64,000 nucleotides of DNA from Medicago truncatula (lineage: Eukaryota; Streptophyta; Magnoliopsida; Fabales; Fabaceae): NCBI RefSeq assembly GCF_003473485.1, contig NC_053048.1:28020755-28084754 (forward strand), read 5' to 3'. Both the position numbers and the translations under genes were made by a program. Below, in pieces: positions 41,929-61,975 of this stretch. The notes under the pieces were generated by a model. The model did no database searches, had not been told where the DNA came from, and worked only from the letters and a program-made list of their open reading frames with translations. Position 1 is the stretch's first letter, and each line of letters begins with the position of its first letter.

Positions 41929-43290
41929 ATGGCATCCCAAACTACCCTTGAAAGAGAAGTTGTGGAGCTACAAAGGTACATAGATACAAACACTACTAAA
42001 AAAACTAAATTTAGTGAGGGAAAACGTAAAATCCCTCTCTAATTCCATCACTAAATTTTGCGCCCAAGGAATTTGTGAGGAATTTCATTTTTTCCGTCAC
42101 TAATTTCCCTCGCTATTTTGCTTTTTCTAGTAGTGAAATCCAACACCCGAAAGTTCACGACCAAAGATACAAAGGGTGGCAGAGTATGTCGGATTCGGAA
42201 ATAGAAATTTTTTTGCCAAGCATTACTCACCCAAGTTGGTGTCAATAGGTCCTATCCATCATGGCAATACAAATCTGAAGTTAGGAGAGAAGTACAAGCT
42301 TATGTGGGCAGCAAAATACATCAAAAACACCAGAAAAGTTCAGAAGGATATGCACAACAAGATTGCTGATAATATTGATGAACTGAAGGGTCATTTTAGT
42401 GACGATGTTTTAACTTTAACCGGAAAGTCTCTTGAAGGCTTTGGTAGCATTAAAGAAAAGCTGTCGTGGATGTTGTTCGTGGATGGATGTTCTTTGCTGC
42501 ATATCATGGATACAGCCAAGCTTCATGAACCAGGGCAGATGAATATTAAGCTTGATCAACGGAATCTTGTGATGATTGATGTGGTTTTGTTGGAGAATCA
42601 ACTGCCTTATGAAGTACTCAAGCTATTGTGGAAAGATAACAACGAGAATGAATTGATAATGACCATGAAAAATTTCCTCGGCTGTCATCTTTGGGCCACA
42701 CCAGATAATAAGAGGAACCAGAGGTGGCGACGCAATCAAGAGACTAGCAATATGGTTCCAGACAGAAAAGGAAAAGAACAACATAGTGTATTAATAATGA
42801 ATGAATCAGAGACACCCACGCATCTTCTTGATATTACGCATCTTCTTGATCTTTATCGTAATATCATCCTCGGTACTTCTAAACCCAAGGTAGAATAGAA
42901 ATTAGAGAAAATGTAAAATTTGTTACAAAATTTTTTATTTTAAAAATAGAAACAGATTTTGCCTTTTTCTGTTTCTAAATTTGCTACGCGTTATTATAAT
43001 TACAAAGATAAAATAACACTAGTTTTAAAATATTTTTATTTGCAAAATGTAATATTTATTATTGTAAGAGGAAATAAATTTTGAAATTTTATTGTTATGA
43101 TCCAATCTATTTCCGATTAAATTATAGATTAAAAGCAATAAAGCTAACAAAGAGATATGGAGTATGAAGAGTTTAGATGAAAACGTCAAGATGACGACAT
43201 ACAGGAACATACAAAATCTAAGAACTGGAGGAATAAGACTTGGATCAAGCAAGACACGAAGTCCAAGAGACACGAAGCAAGACACGAAGT
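41929..43290 (+). pseudogene. DUF247 copy 1, disrupted by a MITE
   Basis: An ATG at 41929 starts MASQTTLEREVVELQRYIDT, as in copy 2, but at 41991 a 145-bp CACTA MITE plus a 3-bp duplication breaks the frame. After it the frame resumes to 42889. It contains SIGPIHHGNTNLKLGEKYK, MLFVDGCSLLHIM and LLENQLPYEVLKLLWK, the hallmark DUF247 (UPF0481) motifs. A GT donor at 42890 follows THLLDLYRN-type sequence, as in copy 2. The second exon is only a relic at about 43140-43290 (ACATACAGGAACATACAAAA) with the membrane-anchor part missing. Without the insert the first exon reads open. DUF247 proteins are plant-specific, usually 400-500 residues, with a C-terminal membrane segment; in grasses some control self-incompatibility. 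This copy is likely dead. Confidence 0.8.
41991..42135. mobile_element. CACTA MITE in DUF247 copy 1 exon
   Basis: CACTACTAAAAAAACTAAAT at the left and TTGCTTTTTCTAGTAGTG at the right are inverted CACTA termini. AAA at 41988-41990 and 42136-42138 is the 3-bp target duplication. No ORF. Confidence 0.85.
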
Positions 43291-47023: not shown

Positions 47024-50000
47024 ATGATGGCATCCCAAACTATTAAAGAAAAATTTGTGGAGTTAAAAAATTCAAAGCAAACACCCCGAAATGCACGACC
47101 AAAGATACAAAGGGTGGCCGATCATCTCAGAAATAAAAAAGATTTTGGGAAGTATTACTCACCCAAGTTTGTGTCAATAGGTCCTATCCATCATGGCAGT
47201 ACAAATCTGAACATAGGAGAGAAGTACAAGCTTGTGTGGGCATCAAAATACATAGAAAACATTGGACTTATTCCAGAGGAACTACACAAAAAGATTGCTG
47301 ATAACATTGATGAACTGAAGGGTCGTTTTAGCGACGATGTTTTAAATTTAACGGGAAACTCTCTTCAAGGCTTTGGATGCCTTGAAGAAAAGCTGTCGTG
47401 GATGTTGTTCGTGGATGGATGCTCTTTGCTTTATATCTTGGAGAAAGTTACGTTGTTTAATGACCCAAGGCCTATGGATATTAAGCTTGATCAACTGGTT
47501 CTTGTGATGATGGATGTGCTTTTGTTGGAGAATCAACTTCCTTATGAAGTACTCAAGCTATTGTGGAAAGATAACAATGAGAATGAATTGATAAAATGCA
47601 TGACGAGTTTTCCCAACTATCTTGAGATCTTACCAGATGAGGATGAGTCACAGTCAGAGAAGGAGAAGGAAGGAGAAGGAGAACATAGTGTATTAATACC
47701 AGACGAGTTGCAATCAGAGATGGAGGAGGAAGGAGAAGGAGAACATAGTGTATCAATACCAGACGAGTTGCAATCAGAGATGGAGGAGGAAGGAGAAGGA
47801 GAACATAGTGTATTAATACCAGACGAGTTGCAATCAGAGATCGAGGAGGAAGGAGAAGGAGAACATAGTGTATCAATACCAGACGAGTTGCAATCAGAGA
47901 TGGAGGAGGAAGGAGAAGGAGAACATAGTGTATTAGTACCAGACGAGTTGCAATCAGAGATGGAGGAGGAAGGAGAAGGAGAACATAGTGTATCAATACC
48001 AGACGAGTTGCAATCAGAGATGGAGGAGGAAGGAGAAGGAGAACATAGTGTATCAATACCAGACGAGTTGCAATCAGAGATGGAGGAGGAAGGAGAAGGA
48101 GAACATAGTGTATCAATACCAGACGAGTTGCAATCAGAGATGGAGGAGGAAGGAGAAGGAGAACATAGTGTATCAATACCAGACGAGTTGCAATCAGAGA
48201 TGGAGGAGGAAGGAGAAGGAGAACATAGTGTATTAATACCAGACGAGTTGCAATCAGAGATGGAGGAGGAAGGAGAAGGAGAACATAGTGTATCAATACC
48301 AGACGAGTTGCAATCAGAGATGGAGGAGGAAGGAGAAGGAGAACATAGTGTATCAATACCAGACGAGTTGCAATCAGAGATGGAGGAGGAAGGAGAAGGA
48401 GAACATAGTGTATCAATACCAGACGAGTTGCAATCAGAGATGGAGGAGGAAGGAGAAGGAGAACATAGTGTATCAATACCAGACGAGTTGCAATCAGAGA
48501 TGGAGGAGGAAGGAGAAGGAGAACATAGTGTATTAATACCAGACGAGTTGCAATCAGAGATCGAGGAGGAAGGAGAAGGAGAACATAGTGTATCAATACC
48601 AGACGAGTTGCAATCAGAGATCGAGGAGGAAGGAGAAGGAGAACATAGTGCATGAGTTGCAATCAGAGATCGAAGAGGAAGGAGAAGGAGAACATTGTGT
48701 ATCAATACCAGACGAGTTGCAATCAGAGATCGAGGAGGAAGGAGAAGGAGAACATAGTGCATCAATACCAGACGAGTTGCAATCAGAGATGGAGGAGGAA
48801 GGAGAAGGAGAACATAGTGTATCAATACCAGACGAGTTGCAATCAGAGATGGAGGAGGAAGGAGAAGGAGAACATAGTGTATCAATACCAGACGAGTTGC
48901 AATCAGAGATGGAGGAGGAAGGAGAAGGAGAACATAGTGTATCAATACCAGACGAGTTGCAATCAGAGATGGAGGAGGAAGGAGAAGGAGAACATAGTGT
49001 ATCAATACCAGACGAGTTGCAATCAGAGATGGAGGAGGAAGGAGAAGGAGAACATAGTGTATTAATACCAGACGAGTTGCAATCAGAGATGGAGGAGGAA
49101 GGAGAAGGAGAACATAGTGTATCAATACCAGACGAGTTGCAATCAGAGATGGAGGAGGAAGGAGAAGGAGAACATAGTGTATTAATACCAGACGAGTTGC
49201 AATCAGAGATCGAGGAGGAAGGAGAAGGAGAACATAGTGTATCAATACCAGACGAGTTGCAATCAGAGATCGAGGAGGAAGGAGAAGGAGAACATAGTGC
49301 ATCAATACCAGTACCAAATGAGTCACAGTTAGAGAAACCAACTCATCTTCTTGATCTTCAACGCAAAGTCATCCTCACTACATCTAATTCCAAGGTACAA
49401 TAGAATTAACAATAAAAAGTACTAAAATAAATTGAAATAACAAAAGAAATTAGAGACAAAAAAAATATTTGGTTACAAAATTAAGGACAGAATTAGAAAC
49501 GGAGTAATTTGTCTTTTTTGGTTTCTAAATAATCTTTCCTTTGCAAAATGTGATATTTATTATAGTACAATACAAGCAATTAAGTATAATTTTGAAATTT
49601 TGTTATTATCATAAGTTAGATGATACAATCCATTGGAAATAAAAGCAATGAAGCTGCCGACATGAAATGGAGTCAGAAGCTTCTTCAAAAAATAAAGATA
49701 TGGAGTCGGAAGCTTCTTCAAAAAATAACGAATTGGAAATGGAAGCTTTATTATAAAATAATGAAATGGATTGGGAAGAAATCAAAGCGATATGTCGTAC
49801 CGTTCACATACAGGAACATACAAGATCTAAAAGCTGTAGGAATAAGACTTAAGACAAGCATGACACAAAGGCCAAGAGACATAGATTTCTGCGGAGGATG
49901 GTTCGCTGCAGAACTGACTCTTCCTATGATCATTGTGACCAACGGTTCAGCCCATATGTTCCTCAACCTGATAGCATATGAGATGTGTCCAGATTTTGAG

Positions 50001-50357
50001 AACGATTACGAAATTTGTTCTTTTCTAGCTTTCATGGACTCGCTCATCGACCATCCTGAAGACGTGAAGGAATTGAGATCAAATGGGATTTTGCTCAATA
50101 AACTTGGGAGTGATGAGGAAGTTGCCCATCTTTTCAATATCATAAGTACTGACTTGGTACGAAACACATACATATACCATGACGTTAAATGGAAAATAAA
50201 TGATCATTACTGTAATAAATACAAGACTTGGATAGCGCAGGGTTTTCACACTTACTTCAACAGTCCTTGGGCCATTATTGCATTCATTGCTGCGGTTGTC
50301 GTCCTTGTTCTTACTTTCATTCAGACATGGTTTACAATTCACCCGACTAGCAAATAA
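47024..50357 (+). CDS. DUF247 copy 2 with giant acidic repeat, frame broken in the repeat
   Basis: Exon 1 runs from the ATG at 47024 to 49394 and exon 2 from 49620 to 50357, joined in phase 0 (AAG|GTACAA and TTAG|ATG). The N-terminal part carries SIGPIHHGSTNLNIGEKYK, MLFVDGCSLLYIL and LLENQLPYEVLKLLWKDNNE. Exon 2 carries the usual C-terminal half (DLKAVGIRLKT, LPMIIVTNGSAHMFLNLIAY) and a membrane segment of about 20 residues before TIHPTSK. Between them lies a 60-bp coding minisatellite of about 27 units. An 11-bp deletion near 48653 creates an immediate TGA, giving a 543-residue protein without exon 2; the frame downstream stays open to the donor. It may be a recent pseudogene or a truncated soluble variant. 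Usual family length is 400-500 residues. Confidence 0.8.
47638..49310 (+). repeat. 60-bp coding minisatellite, about 27 units
   Basis: The unit encodes PDELQSEMEEEGEGEHSVSI, with eight acidic residues in 20. Sixteen units run from 47701 in one register, the sixteenth cut to 49 bp, then eleven more follow. A degenerate unit precedes and half a unit follows. Variants (ATGGAGG/ATCGAGG and TATCAATA/TATTAATA) fall in ordered blocks. DUF247 copy 1 has only one ancestral-like unit (EQHSVLIMNESE) in this place. Long frames on the minus strand are shadows of the repeat. Confidence 0.95.
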
Positions 50358-50730: not shown

Positions 50731-53179
50731 TGTTATGAATCATGGAATCCTAGGGATAAAGATCATAGTGATCGATCAGCTAGAAAGAGAGCATAGGTCT
50801 ATTAATGTGGGAGATACACATAGTGACTCATAGTAGAGTAAACTAGATTAGATAAAAGAAGAATAGAGTACACTGGTGAGGGTTATTTATAGGGGTGAGT
50901 TAGTCTAACTAACTCCTAACCTACCAACTAACCATAGTTTACATATCAACTAACTATGGTTTACTCACTATACTCTAATAATCTCAGGGATAAAGATCAT
51001 ATTGATCAGCTAGAAAGAGAGCATAGGTGTATTAATGTGGGAGATACCCATAGTGACTCATAGTAGAGTAAACTAGATTTGATAAAAGATGAATAGAGTA
51101 CAATGGTGAGGGTTATTTATAGGGGTGAGTTAGTCTAACTAACTCCTAACCTACCAACTAACCATAGTTTACATATCAACTAACAATGGTTTACTCACTA
51201 TACTCTAATAGTCCCCCTCAAACTCAAAATGGGAAAATTCACCAATTTGAGTTTGAAAATACAGTGAAAATACTATGATGAACTATACTGTAGACCAAGT
51301 AAACTAGACGGTGAACTAAGTAAAACAAAAACTAATGGGAAATGATGCAGCCCAATGCAAAATTATAATCTGTCCATAGCCCATTTGCAAGGAATTTCCA
51401 GTAGGTACACATTGCCACTCCCATTGTGAAAGTTCCAAAACATCGTAATGAAGGAGAAACGCCATGTTGCTAACTGAACGTACTTTACCAAAATAGCTTG
51501 TACCAAACGTGCTTTTCAAAAATCGCTTTTCCATAATCTGTAAAGTGATTAGTCTTCTGTAAAGAGAAACAAGATAACGGGATAATCCTCTTGTGCAAAA
51601 CGTGCTTCTTCCAGAAATAGCTTTTCTGAATGAAAAATAACTTATGCCAAAAGCACTTTTCCAAAAAACAGCTTTTCTAAAAATCGAAATTCTGAAACGC
51701 ACTTTTGTGATTCTGTGATTGTCCAAACGCAAGTCTGAACGGAATCAAAACAACTCATACCAAACGCGTTCTTCCAATAAGCACTTCTCCAAAATCCGAT
51801 TTAAAATAACTTCTTCAAAACGTGCTTATGTAAAGCTTCTTTAAACTGGAATGATGAATCTGAGATGATTGAAACACGAATTTGCGATATCAGAGAACAA
51901 TACAAAGCCGCAAACAAGGAATCTCAGATCAGAGAGCTAATTTACGATGTAGAGAGGAAGAAGGAGACGAACGCCAAAAGGCTCAAATCTTGTTGTGTCG
52001 AGTATCAGAAAGAACGATACCTATGTCGAAAATGTGCCACCGTGAATAACCGTTTTCCTTCCTCTATCCCAAGGTATCCACCACAAACGGAAGGAACGAT
52101 ATCAGAGAACAATAAAAGCAGAGAACAGTGAAGACAAATGTGTTCTTCCGCCGGGATCGAATTCCACAATAAACTCGTCATGTAATGTGAAAAACAAAAG
52201 TTTATTGTTGTCTGAGGAAACCAGCGGTTCAGTCTGTTTTCCAATGAACAACCACAAAGCCAAAGGCTTCACGGCGGCGACGCCGTAAACAGAGCTCCTC
52301 AATCTCACCGGTAAAGTTGTGATGAACTCTTTCGACACTTCAGAAATAACGAAATCAGAGTCGCGATTCTTCAATTCAGGTTCAAGAACTTCCAATTTCT
52401 CATCTTCTTGCGATTCAATGAACACACAATCGTCTTCTTTGACGATGTTGCAGCAAGGATCGACGATTACGCAAGAAATCTCACCAATCTTGATGAAAAT
52501 CCATCAAATTTTGGTTTGATTGAAAGGTTAGAAACCGGTATGATTGGAGAATCAAAACTGCCGAAAAGGACGCAATCTTGAGAAGTTGAAGTATCCTAAA
52601 ATGCAGAAGTTGCGAAAACCGCATCATCAAATTCTTCATCTTCGTGGAAGCGGAAGCATCATCAACTTCATCCCTAGGGTATCACTCTGATACCATGTTA
52701 TGAATCATGGAATCCCATGGATAAAGATCACAGTGATCAGCTGAAAAGAGAGCATAGGTGTATTCATGTGGGAGATACACATAGTGACTCATAGTAGAAT
52801 AATCTATATTTGATAAAAGATGAATAGAGTACACGGGTGAGGGTTATTTATAGGGGTGAGATAGTCTAACTAACTCCTAACCTACCAACTAACCATAGTT
52901 TACATATCAACTAACTATGGTTTACTCATTATACTCTAATAATCCCAGGGATAAAGATCATAGTGATCAGCTAGAAAGAGAGCATAGATGTATTCATGTG
53001 GGAGATACTCATAGTGACCCATAGTAGAGTAAATTAGATTTCATAAAACATGAATAGAGTACAATGGTGATAGTTATTTATAGTGGTGAATTAGTATAAC
53101 TAACTCCTAACCACCTAACCTACCAACTAACCATAGTTTACATATCAACTAACAATGGTTTACTCACTATACTCTAATA
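50731..53179 (-). mobile_element. Short non-coding LTR retroelement (fossil)
   Basis: LTRs at 50731-51210 and 52696-53179 are flanked by GTTTA on both sides (50726-50730, 53180-53184). ACTCTGATACCA at 52684-52695 is a tRNA-Met binding site in minus orientation, and a purine-rich tract (GAGGGGGAC on the minus strand) adjoins the other LTR. Each LTR contains a duplicated unit of about 245 bp. The interior is about 1.5 kb without gag or pol, so it is a TRIM/LARD-like non-autonomous element. The ends look whole. By eye the LTRs differ at several percent of positions, suggesting an age of a few million years. Confidence 0.8.
51860..52680. other. Gene-like captured sequence inside the LTR element
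   Basis: The interior next to the primer site is GC-richer and has open frames on both strands. I do not recognise a retroviral protein here; a host gene fragment is the likeliest reading. Which strand was coding in the source is not certain. Confidence 0.35.
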
Positions 53180-60307: not shown

Positions 60308-61975
60308 CTAGTCCAAGCAATGCTTGAACCTTGATCTAGGCAATGACTTGGTGAACACATCCGTTGGATTCTCTTCCGATGCCACTTTTTCAACCACAAT
60401 CTCTTTTGATTCAATCATGTCTCTAACAAAGTGTAAGCGAATGTCAATGTGCTTTGTCCTCTCATGATACACTTGATGATTTTCCAAGTGAATGGCACTT
60501 TGACTATCACAATGTATCTTCACACATTCTTGAGTAATTCCTAACTCACCCATCATCCCTTTCAACCATATGGCCTCTTTCACACCTTCAACAAGTGTGA
60601 TGTACTCCGCTTGAGTTGTAGATAAGGCCACCACGGATTGTTGATTTGCCTTCCAACTAATAGTCGTGCCATAAAGAGTAAACACAAAACCCGATAAGGA
60701 TTTTCTAGTGTCCACATTGCCCGCATAGTCCGCATCAACATACCCCTCCAAAGCGTCTTCATCTTGAGCTGCTCTTGTGTACTTCAAACCGCCCTTCAAA
60801 GACCCATTCAAATACCTCAATACCCACGTCAATGCTTGCCAATGCACAATACCCAGATTCTCCATAAACCGACTCACAATGCTAACCGCATAAGCTAAGT
60901 CCGGTCTACTACAAACCATTCCATACATGATGCTTCCAACCCCACTTGCATAGGGAGTACCTTCCATCAATTGCTTCTCATCCTCGGATTGAGGACATTG
61001 TTGTATGGATAACTTTGTGTGGTGCCCCAAGGGAGTGCTCACGGTTTTAGAGTTTGACATTCTAAAACGCTCCACCACCTTCTTCAAATAACTAAGTTGA
61101 GATAAGAAAAGTTCGCCTTTGTCACGATTCCTCAAGATATCATTTCCAAGAACTCTCTTTGCCGGACCAAGATCTTTCATCTCAAATTCACCATTTAACT
61201 TTTCTTTGAGCTTCATAATCTCATCCTTGCTAGAGCTCGCCATCAAGATATCATCAACATATAAAAGAAGGTAGAGAATGACTTTCTCACTCTTCTTCAA
61301 CATGTACACACAAGAATCATATCCGCTTCTCACAAAGCCGGTCTTCAAAAGAAATTCATCAAACCGACGATACCATTGCCTAGGGCTTTGCTTCAACCCA
61401 TACAAAGATTTCTTCAAAAGACACACCTTAGATTTGTCCTCCACAAAACCTTCCGGTTGCTCCATGTAGATTGTCTCTTCAAGGTCACCATGTAAGAAAG
61501 CGGTCTTCACATCCATTTGTTCCAACTCAAGATTGAATTGATTCACGATAGTCATAAGTATCCTTATGGAACAATGTTTCACCACCGGTGAAAAGATCTC
61601 GTTGTAGTCGATCCCCTCCACTTGAGTGAAACCCTTGGCCACAAGTCTTGCTTTGTACCTTGGACCTTCAACACTCGGAATACCTTCCTTTTTCTTGAAG
61701 ATCCACTTGCATCCAACTACCCTTTGGTGATTAGGTAGCTTCACAAGTTTTGAAGTTTGGTTCCTTACCAATGAATCAATCTCTTCATTCACCGCCTTCA
61801 ACCAATATTTGCTCTCTTTGCTCTCAAATGCCTCCTTGAAGTTTCTAGGCTCCAAGTCATGCACATCTTCAGCCGCATTTAGAGAAAAACACACCAAGTC
61901 CGCATAACCATATCTCCTAGGAGCCGTAATGGTCCTTCTTTCTCTATCTCTAGCCAAGAGATAATCCGGATTCAC
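60308..61975 (-). other. Copia reverse transcriptase/RNase H part (fossil)
   Basis: The frame includes the RVT_2 start (VVGCKWIFKKKEG), the catalytic LLYVDDILMA region and the RNase H end (WKANQQSVVALSTTQAEYI, HCDSQSAIHL). It belongs to the element at 59365. Domain order is normal for Copia. Confidence 0.9.

What the first reader, a model, noticed from the sequence alone, without database searches (positions are those of the whole stretch)
47638..49310. Twenty-seven-unit acidic minisatellite inside a DUF247 gene
Units of 60 bp encode a 20-residue acidic peptide (PDELQSEMEEEGEGEHSVSI) with almost no change, while the sister gene has a single equivalent unit. The array adds about 540 residues to the variable middle of a protein family usually 400-500 long. 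Such low divergence means the expansion is recent and probably polymorphic. I know of no DUF247 protein described with this.
Basis: partly seen in the sequence, partly recalled or inferred. Interest (0 to 1): 0.75.

Follow-up and report, generated by a model that had tools for sequence, protein, structure and literature searches.

The report
Runaway repeat in a decaying gene
A plant gene of a large, fast-changing family has grown a run of 28 near-identical 60-base repeats out of a segment that most neighbouring sister genes carry once, but an 11-base loss inside the run breaks the reading frame, so this is most likely the relic of a decaying gene rather than a giant new protein.

Summary
The array is real: 28 units (27 of 60 bp, one of 49 bp) at 47654-49311, about 2% mean pairwise difference, in exon 1 of a DUF247 gene. 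The frame stops at TGA 48653-48655 after 17 units, leaving 543 residues without the C-terminal half of DUF247. A splice acceptor found in 16 of 21 other loci is also missing, and 5 of 5 gene pairs tested show no significant purifying selection.

The genome is held. The gene lies in a cluster of about 20 DUF247 loci within 0.22 Mb. Of 18 paralogs read, 12 carry the acidic segment once. Ten have it between two imperfect copies of an 18-bp motif, exactly 60 bp apart in three one-unit paralogs. That spacing explains the unit length. One paralog lost exactly one spacing (78 bp). Another has two units, 97.5% identical to this gene's first two.

Best reading: tandem expansion by unequal exchange or slippage between built-in direct repeats, in a degenerating paralog. 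It is a coding minisatellite of a known kind. Polymorphism and expression could not be tested.

The parts
47024..47653 (+). DUF247 exon 1, 5' part (N-terminal half of the domain), intact
   Evidence: ORF; PF03140 profile 1-199 over residues 28-223; 79-88% DNA identity to cluster paralogs over most of exon 1
47645..47662 (+). Left copy of the flanking 18-bp direct repeat GATGAGTCACAGTCAGAG (peptide DESQSE), the likely seed of the repeat register
   Evidence: exact copy in the window, next copies every 60 bp; paralogs carry the motif at both ends of the acidic segment
47654..49311 (+). Array of 28 acidic units, 60 bp each except unit 17
48614..48662 (+). Unit 17, 11 bp short (49 bp): frameshift, TGA stop at 48653-48655
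49312..49394 (+). End of exon 1 (NESQLEKPTHLLDLQRKVILTTSNSK); right copy of the direct repeat, then AAG|GT donor
   Evidence: donor motif shared with paralogs
49395..49619 (+). Inferred intron; conserved acceptor (ACATAG|A in paralogs) missing; a possible substitute acceptor TTAG at 49616-49619 would keep the downstream frame
   Evidence: splicing inferred, no transcripts
49629..49650 (+). Place where the paralogs' acceptor should be; net loss of about 13 bp by comparison of the printed sequences
49620..50357 (+). DUF247 exon 2 (C-terminal half, hydrophobic C-terminal segment), open but out of frame with the start codon
   Evidence: PF03140 profile 220-401, E 2.6e-48
49664..49778 (+). Second, short coding repeat: 3.5 units of 33 bp, basic peptide (stretch pI 10.8)
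   Evidence: related 33-bp repeat in paralog L055
41926..42889 (+). Sister DUF247 exon 1 with one acidic unit, interrupted by an insertion at 41991-42135; only a remnant of exon 2 downstream

Best explanation
The array is a young coding minisatellite in a decaying member of a tandem DUF247 gene cluster. The cluster's genes carry a short acidic segment (KEKEGEGEHSVSIP) at the end of exon 1, between two imperfect 18-bp copies of GATGAGTCACAGTCAGAG. In the closest relatives the copies are exactly 60 bp apart. Unequal exchange or replication slippage between these copies first duplicated the segment as a 60-bp unit, then amplified it to 28, helped by perfect unit homology and perhaps by the GG-rich purine tract in each unit. 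Later an imprecise event removed 11 bp from unit 17 and broke the frame. The gene as assembled can encode at most a 543-residue N-terminal half with 17 acidic units and no C-terminal half. Shown: array, frameshift, flanking repeats, one-unit paralogs, a two-unit paralog and a paralog deleted by exactly one spacing. Inferred: exchange or slippage as the process, pseudogene status, splicing, and the order of events.
For: 28 units with a 49-bp unit 17 and stop at 48653. Flanking direct repeat in both copies in 10 of 18 paralogs examined, spacing exactly 60 bp in the one-unit paralogs L041, L045 and L046; L041 and L045 are also the window gene's neighbours in the exon 2 tree. L052 equals L051 minus exactly 78 bp, the repeat spacing of L051, with best breakpoints inside or next to the repeat. 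L040 has two units, its first two 97.5% identical over 119 bp to the window's first two, against 84.8% over the rest of exon 1 (P 5.5e-6). All 40 of 40 genome matches to the unit core with at most 2 mismatches lie in DUF247 loci on contig 7. Order of unit types is not random for one pair (type D after C in 3 of 3, 69 of 20000 shuffles). The window gene's 5 of 5 tested pairs show pN/pS not significantly below 1 (p 0.20-0.74), whereas 4 of 6 pairs between other paralogs do (p 0.005 or less). Conserved acceptor in 16 of 21 other loci, not in the window.
Against: 17 in-frame units remain and both flanking exons are otherwise open, so the lesion may be very recent, specific to this accession, or an assembly error. 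A substitute acceptor is available. Two of 6 control pairs also fail to show purifying selection, so the test is weak. The general test for repeated blocks in the unit order was not significant (1289 of 20000 shuffles). Eight of 18 paralogs lack one or both copies of the direct repeat at the threshold used. The L040 match falls to 5 mismatches in 118 bp with other ends (P 1.5e-4), and the P values assume independent sites in a low-complexity stretch.
Confidence: 0.75

Rival explanations
1. The array is functional: a long acidic, probably disordered loop in a working DUF247 protein, with the frameshift an assembly or sequencing error, or absent in other plants.
For: Units keep frame and are open in 27 of 28 cases; exon 2 is open. 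The segment sits where paralogs vary in length. Grass self-incompatibility DUF247 proteins have two hypervariable unstructured loops (passages of PMC9623065 and PMC13033167).
Against: The 11-bp loss is not a homopolymer-type error; the acceptor is lost too; no sign of purifying selection. The only paralog with the same unit twice (L040) is also broken, with a frameshift before the units and TAA after them. Distinct unit variants are 5 replacement to 1 silent among the 6 checked, against 80% replacement expected, as in neutral drift, though so few changes have little power.
Confidence: 0.13
2. A truncated protein is made and used: N-terminal DUF247 half plus 17 acidic units (543 residues, pI about 4), without the hydrophobic C-terminus.
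For: The ORF 47024-48655 is long and starts at the usual ATGATGGCATCC start.
Against: Its stop lies well upstream of the inferred exon junction, which in plants usually exposes a transcript to nonsense-mediated decay (recalled). No transcript data. No constraint detected in exon 1 pairs.
Confidence: 0.05
3. Assembly artefact: the true array is much shorter or longer, or the units are collapsed or expanded.
For: Tandem repeats are a known source of assembly error (abstract of PMC6868369); no reads are held to check.
Against: Nine distinct unit sequences, single-copy variants at defined places, a two-unit version at another locus, and single units in most paralogs read. An exact unit count may still be wrong.
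Confidence: 0.07

Closest known systems
Coding minisatellites / intragenic VNTRs
   Same: In-frame unit (60 bp = 20 codons), head-to-tail copies with low divergence, seeded by short direct repeats, with gain and loss among paralogs.
   Different: Here the frame is broken by an 11-bp loss in one unit; variation between individuals untested.
DUF247 (PF03140) gene clusters, such as the very large block in valley oak
   Same: Dense local tandem duplication with many partial copies (oak: 34 complete and 22 partial in one block, passages of PMC9018854; here 31 matches within 0.22 Mb).
   Different: An internal minisatellite is not mentioned in the passages seen. The genes here are read as two exons.
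Grass S/Z self-incompatibility DUF247 genes
   Same: Same domain; variable, probably unstructured stretches (passages of PMC9623065 and PMC13033167).
   Different: Those are intronless, pollen-expressed and linked to a small stigma-peptide gene; none of this is shown here, and whether the same loop is involved was not established.
Podospora hnwd genes (WD-repeat instability in non-self recognition)
   Same: Repeats in a gene family that expand, contract and exchange between paralogs (abstract of PMC2873952).
   Different: Those repeats are folded WD40 units that set recognition; here the units are acidic low-complexity peptide in a probably dead gene.

Membership tests
DUF247 (PF03140) | Profile match above the curated cut-off, both halves | tested here: met
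   99.2 and 165.8 bits against a cut-off of 24.8
DUF247 (PF03140) | One reading frame from start codon to the C-terminal hydrophobic segment | tested here: not met
   TGA at 48653-48655 inside the array; exon 2 out of frame with the start. So it is a DUF247 gene by descent, not shown to be a working member
Coding minisatellite | Tandem unit of 7 bp or more, multiple of 3, inside a coding exon | tested here: met
   60 bp, 28 units, 17 of them in frame
Coding minisatellite / VNTR | Copy number varies between individuals | not testable with these tools
   One assembly only. Copy number varies between paralogs: 0, 1, 2 and 28
Grass-type S/Z self-incompatibility DUF247 | Intronless ORF of 508-559 residues | tested here: not met
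   Inferred intron between profile positions about 217 and 218 across the cluster
Grass-type S/Z self-incompatibility DUF247 | Pollen expression and a linked small secreted stigma peptide | not tested
   No expression data; no peptide gene was looked for
Pseudogene | Disabling lesions and relaxed constraint | tested here: inconclusive
   Frameshift and lost acceptor found; pN/pS not below 1 in 5 of 5 pairs, but 2 of 6 control pairs behave likewise; no transcripts, no second accession

The most novel reading that the evidence does not exclude
The DUF247 cluster has a built-in length switch. A pair of short direct repeats brackets an acidic loop, and exchange across them in either direction (0, 1, 2, 28 units), together with conversion between paralogs, keeps changing loop length and charge in a family of possible recognition proteins. 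The 28-unit allele would be the overshoot of a diversity generator rather than mere decay.
Probability: 0.12. Interest if true: 0.6.

Novelty: new member of a known kind. Interest (0 to 1): 0.35.

Why it matters
It shows, within one genome, the whole path of a coding minisatellite: the bracketing direct repeats, the one-unit state, an exact deletion, a two-unit state, and a 28-unit array. It explains the unit length by the spacing of the repeats. It also corrects a likely annotation trap: a 540-residue acidic insertion would be predicted only if the frameshift were overlooked. If loop length proves variable among plants and in intact paralogs, the family becomes a test case for repeat-driven diversification of candidate receptors.

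Tried and rejected
Idea that the array is one ORF: rejected. Idea that the sister is an intact one-unit gene: rejected, it is broken. Solved structures for exon 2: 0 distinct sequences at E up to 0.01. AlphaFold2 model of a paralog-family protein (L001, 8-sequence alignment) to see whether the array's place is an exposed loop: mean pLDDT 52.5, pTM 0.47, too poor to use; no fold search was run. Weak Pfam hits of the repeat to an exotoxin catalytic domain are below that family's cut-off (20.9 and 20.1 against 25.9 bits) and were set aside as low-complexity matches. Positive selection in exon 2 (pN/pS 1.69 window-L041, 1.60 L046-L048) was considered and dropped: p 0.25 and 0.59. Splicing round the frameshift inside the array was considered in thought only and not tested. 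Other DUF247 loci checked for similar arrays by TRF: 31 loci (L001-L008, L039-L061); none had a comparable one; that is a part of the 110 DUF247 matches. Literature: 'DUF247' alone 87 papers, 40 listed; with 'tandem repeat' 7; 'UPF0481' 38; with 'Medicago truncatula' 9; 'minisatellite'+'Medicago truncatula'+'coding' 34, 15 listed; four-term search 237, 8 listed. In the titles and abstract beginnings shown I saw no DUF247 internal repeat; the papers were not read through, so this is weak evidence of absence.

Full report
1. The observation. Tandem Repeats Finder gives one array at 47654-49311, period 60, 27.8 copies, 96% matches, score 3092, by far the strongest of the 57 rows in the window. 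Cutting at a unit motif gives 28 units of 9 distinct sequences; 27 are 60 bp and unit 17 is 49 bp. Mean pairwise difference is 2.0% among 26 full units, the divergent last one left out. Chance is not an issue.

2. Unit 17 (48614-48662) lacks 11 bp. The frame from ATG 47024 therefore ends at TGA 48653-48655: 543 residues, of which 333 are the 17 in-frame units (133 D+E, 2 K+R, pI about 4). Units 18-28 are open only in another frame, the one that leads on to the end of exon 1. Exon 2 (49620-50357, PF03140 profile 220-401, E 2.6e-48) is open but cannot be reached in frame from the start codon.

3. Gene structure. In the cluster, DUF247 matches break at profile position about 217/218, exon 1 ends in AAG|GTA and 16 of 21 other loci have an acceptor of the ACATAG|A kind where the script could find it; in 5 (L042, L043, L047, L048, L057) the script did not locate the stretch. 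In the window the stretch reads CCATTGGAAATAAAAGC: the acceptor is gone, about 13 bp net by comparison of the printed sequences. TTAG at 49616-49619 could replace it and would keep frame. Splicing is inferred throughout; no transcripts are held.

4. Where it is. The window is contig 7, 28020755-28084754, of a held genome of 430 Mb in 42 contigs. Size, contig lengths and eight large contigs recall Medicago truncatula A17; that is recalled, not a tool result. Of 110 DUF247 matches listed, 31 lie between 28.063 and 28.276 Mb, which I group as about 20 loci. I fetched 20 loci (L039-L058), 18 from the cluster and two from elsewhere on contig 7. Of these 20 with the sister and the window gene (22), 8 showed both exons without stop or frameshift in the stretches matched (L043-L046, L048, L049, L051, L054); in several others part of the gene lay outside the stretch fetched, so 8 is a lower bound.

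5. Origin of the unit. Reading the exon 1 ends of 18 paralogs (the sister and L039-L055), 12 have the acidic segment once, L040, L039 and L043 twice (the last two as old, diverged copies), L050 and L052 not at all, and L053 in part. An 18-bp motif, GATGAGTCACAGTCAGAG, with up to 5 mismatches, occurs on both sides of the segment in 10 of the 18, once in 6 and not in 2. Spacings are 60 (L041, L045, L046 and the first pair of L040), 63, 66, 69, 78 (twice), 84 and 52 bp. The unit length of the array is thus the spacing already present in one-unit relatives. L041 and L045 are the window gene's nearest neighbours in the exon 2 tree (support 0.962 for window+L041), and L046 in the exon 1 tree (0.886).

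6. Gain, loss and exchange. L052 is L051 minus exactly 78 bp, the spacing in L051; the best breakpoints fall in or beside the repeat (11 or 12 mismatches in all). L040, 24 kb away, has two units with the derived GACGAGTTGCAA junction that otherwise only the window array has; 119 bp match with 3 mismatches (97.5%) against 84.8% over 564 bp of exon 1 (P 5.5e-6). A differently bounded 118-bp comparison gave 5 mismatches and P 1.5e-4. Conversion between the two genes, or a shared two-unit ancestor, would explain it. In the genome, all 40 matches to the unit core with at most 2 mismatches are in DUF247 loci of contig 7 (28 in the array, 12 elsewhere); the 13 matches with 3 mismatches are mostly chance (the backward control gave 33). 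The order of unit types ABCDEBBBBCBBBBCDFGHBBBBCBCDI shows D always after C (69 of 20000 shuffles), but a general test of repeated blocks was not significant (1289 of 20000). Each unit carries a purine tract with GG runs: 47 two-G four-run motifs in 1.8 kb against 22 in the rest of the + strand, a possible aid to instability (inference).

7. Is the gene working? Window pairs with L041 and L045 (exon 2) and L046, L048 and L054 (exon 1) have pN/pS 0.69-1.69, none significantly different from 1 (p 0.20-0.74). Of 6 pairs between other paralogs, 4 are significantly below 1 (p 0.005 or less) and 2 are not. The window's mean dN/dS is the highest of 13 in exon 1 (0.60) and among the higher of 16 in exon 2 (0.85). 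Together with the frameshift and the lost acceptor this points to relaxed constraint, not proof.

8. Conclusion. The array is a young coding minisatellite that grew from bracketing direct repeats in a decaying DUF247 paralog. It works like other intragenic tandem repeats; nothing shows a new mechanism. The bolder reading, a length switch for a recognition loop, is kept at 12%: passages of PMC9623065 and PMC13033167 describe two hypervariable unstructured loops in grass self-incompatibility DUF247 proteins, but I could not show that the same loop is involved, and the structure prediction was too poor to use.

Noticed in passing
41991-42135: A 145-bp element with CACTACTA...TAGTAGTG ends and AAA on both sides sits in exon 1 of the sister DUF247 gene; the empty site was found in paralogs L050 and L045 (2 of 4 loci tested). 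It looks like a CACTA-type miniature transposon.
   Followed up: partly
49664-49778; L055 593-674; L045 1036-1134: A second repeat hot spot at the start of exon 2: 33-bp units, 3.5 in the window and 2.5 in L055 (basic peptide), and three identical 33-bp units of another sequence in L045.
   Followed up: partly
L042 78-169: A 21-bp repeat, 4.3 copies, in exon 1 of paralog L042 (ENTALNA-type peptide): a third place of length change in this cluster.
   Followed up: no
47553-48653 and 47617-49302, - strand: Long antisense ORFs of 366 and 561 residues over the array, hydrophobic and repetitive; most likely a by-product of a unit length divisible by three.
   Followed up: no
exon 1 and exon 2 trees of the cluster: Exons of one gene have different nearest relatives (window with L046 in exon 1; L046 with L048, support 0.999, in exon 2), which suggests exchange between paralogs.
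   Followed up: partly
50752-51210: A 230-bp unit repeated twice (95% matches) just downstream of the gene.
   Followed up: no
60308-61555, - strand: Copia-type reverse transcriptase ORF (RVT_2, E 3.2e-43).
   Followed up: no
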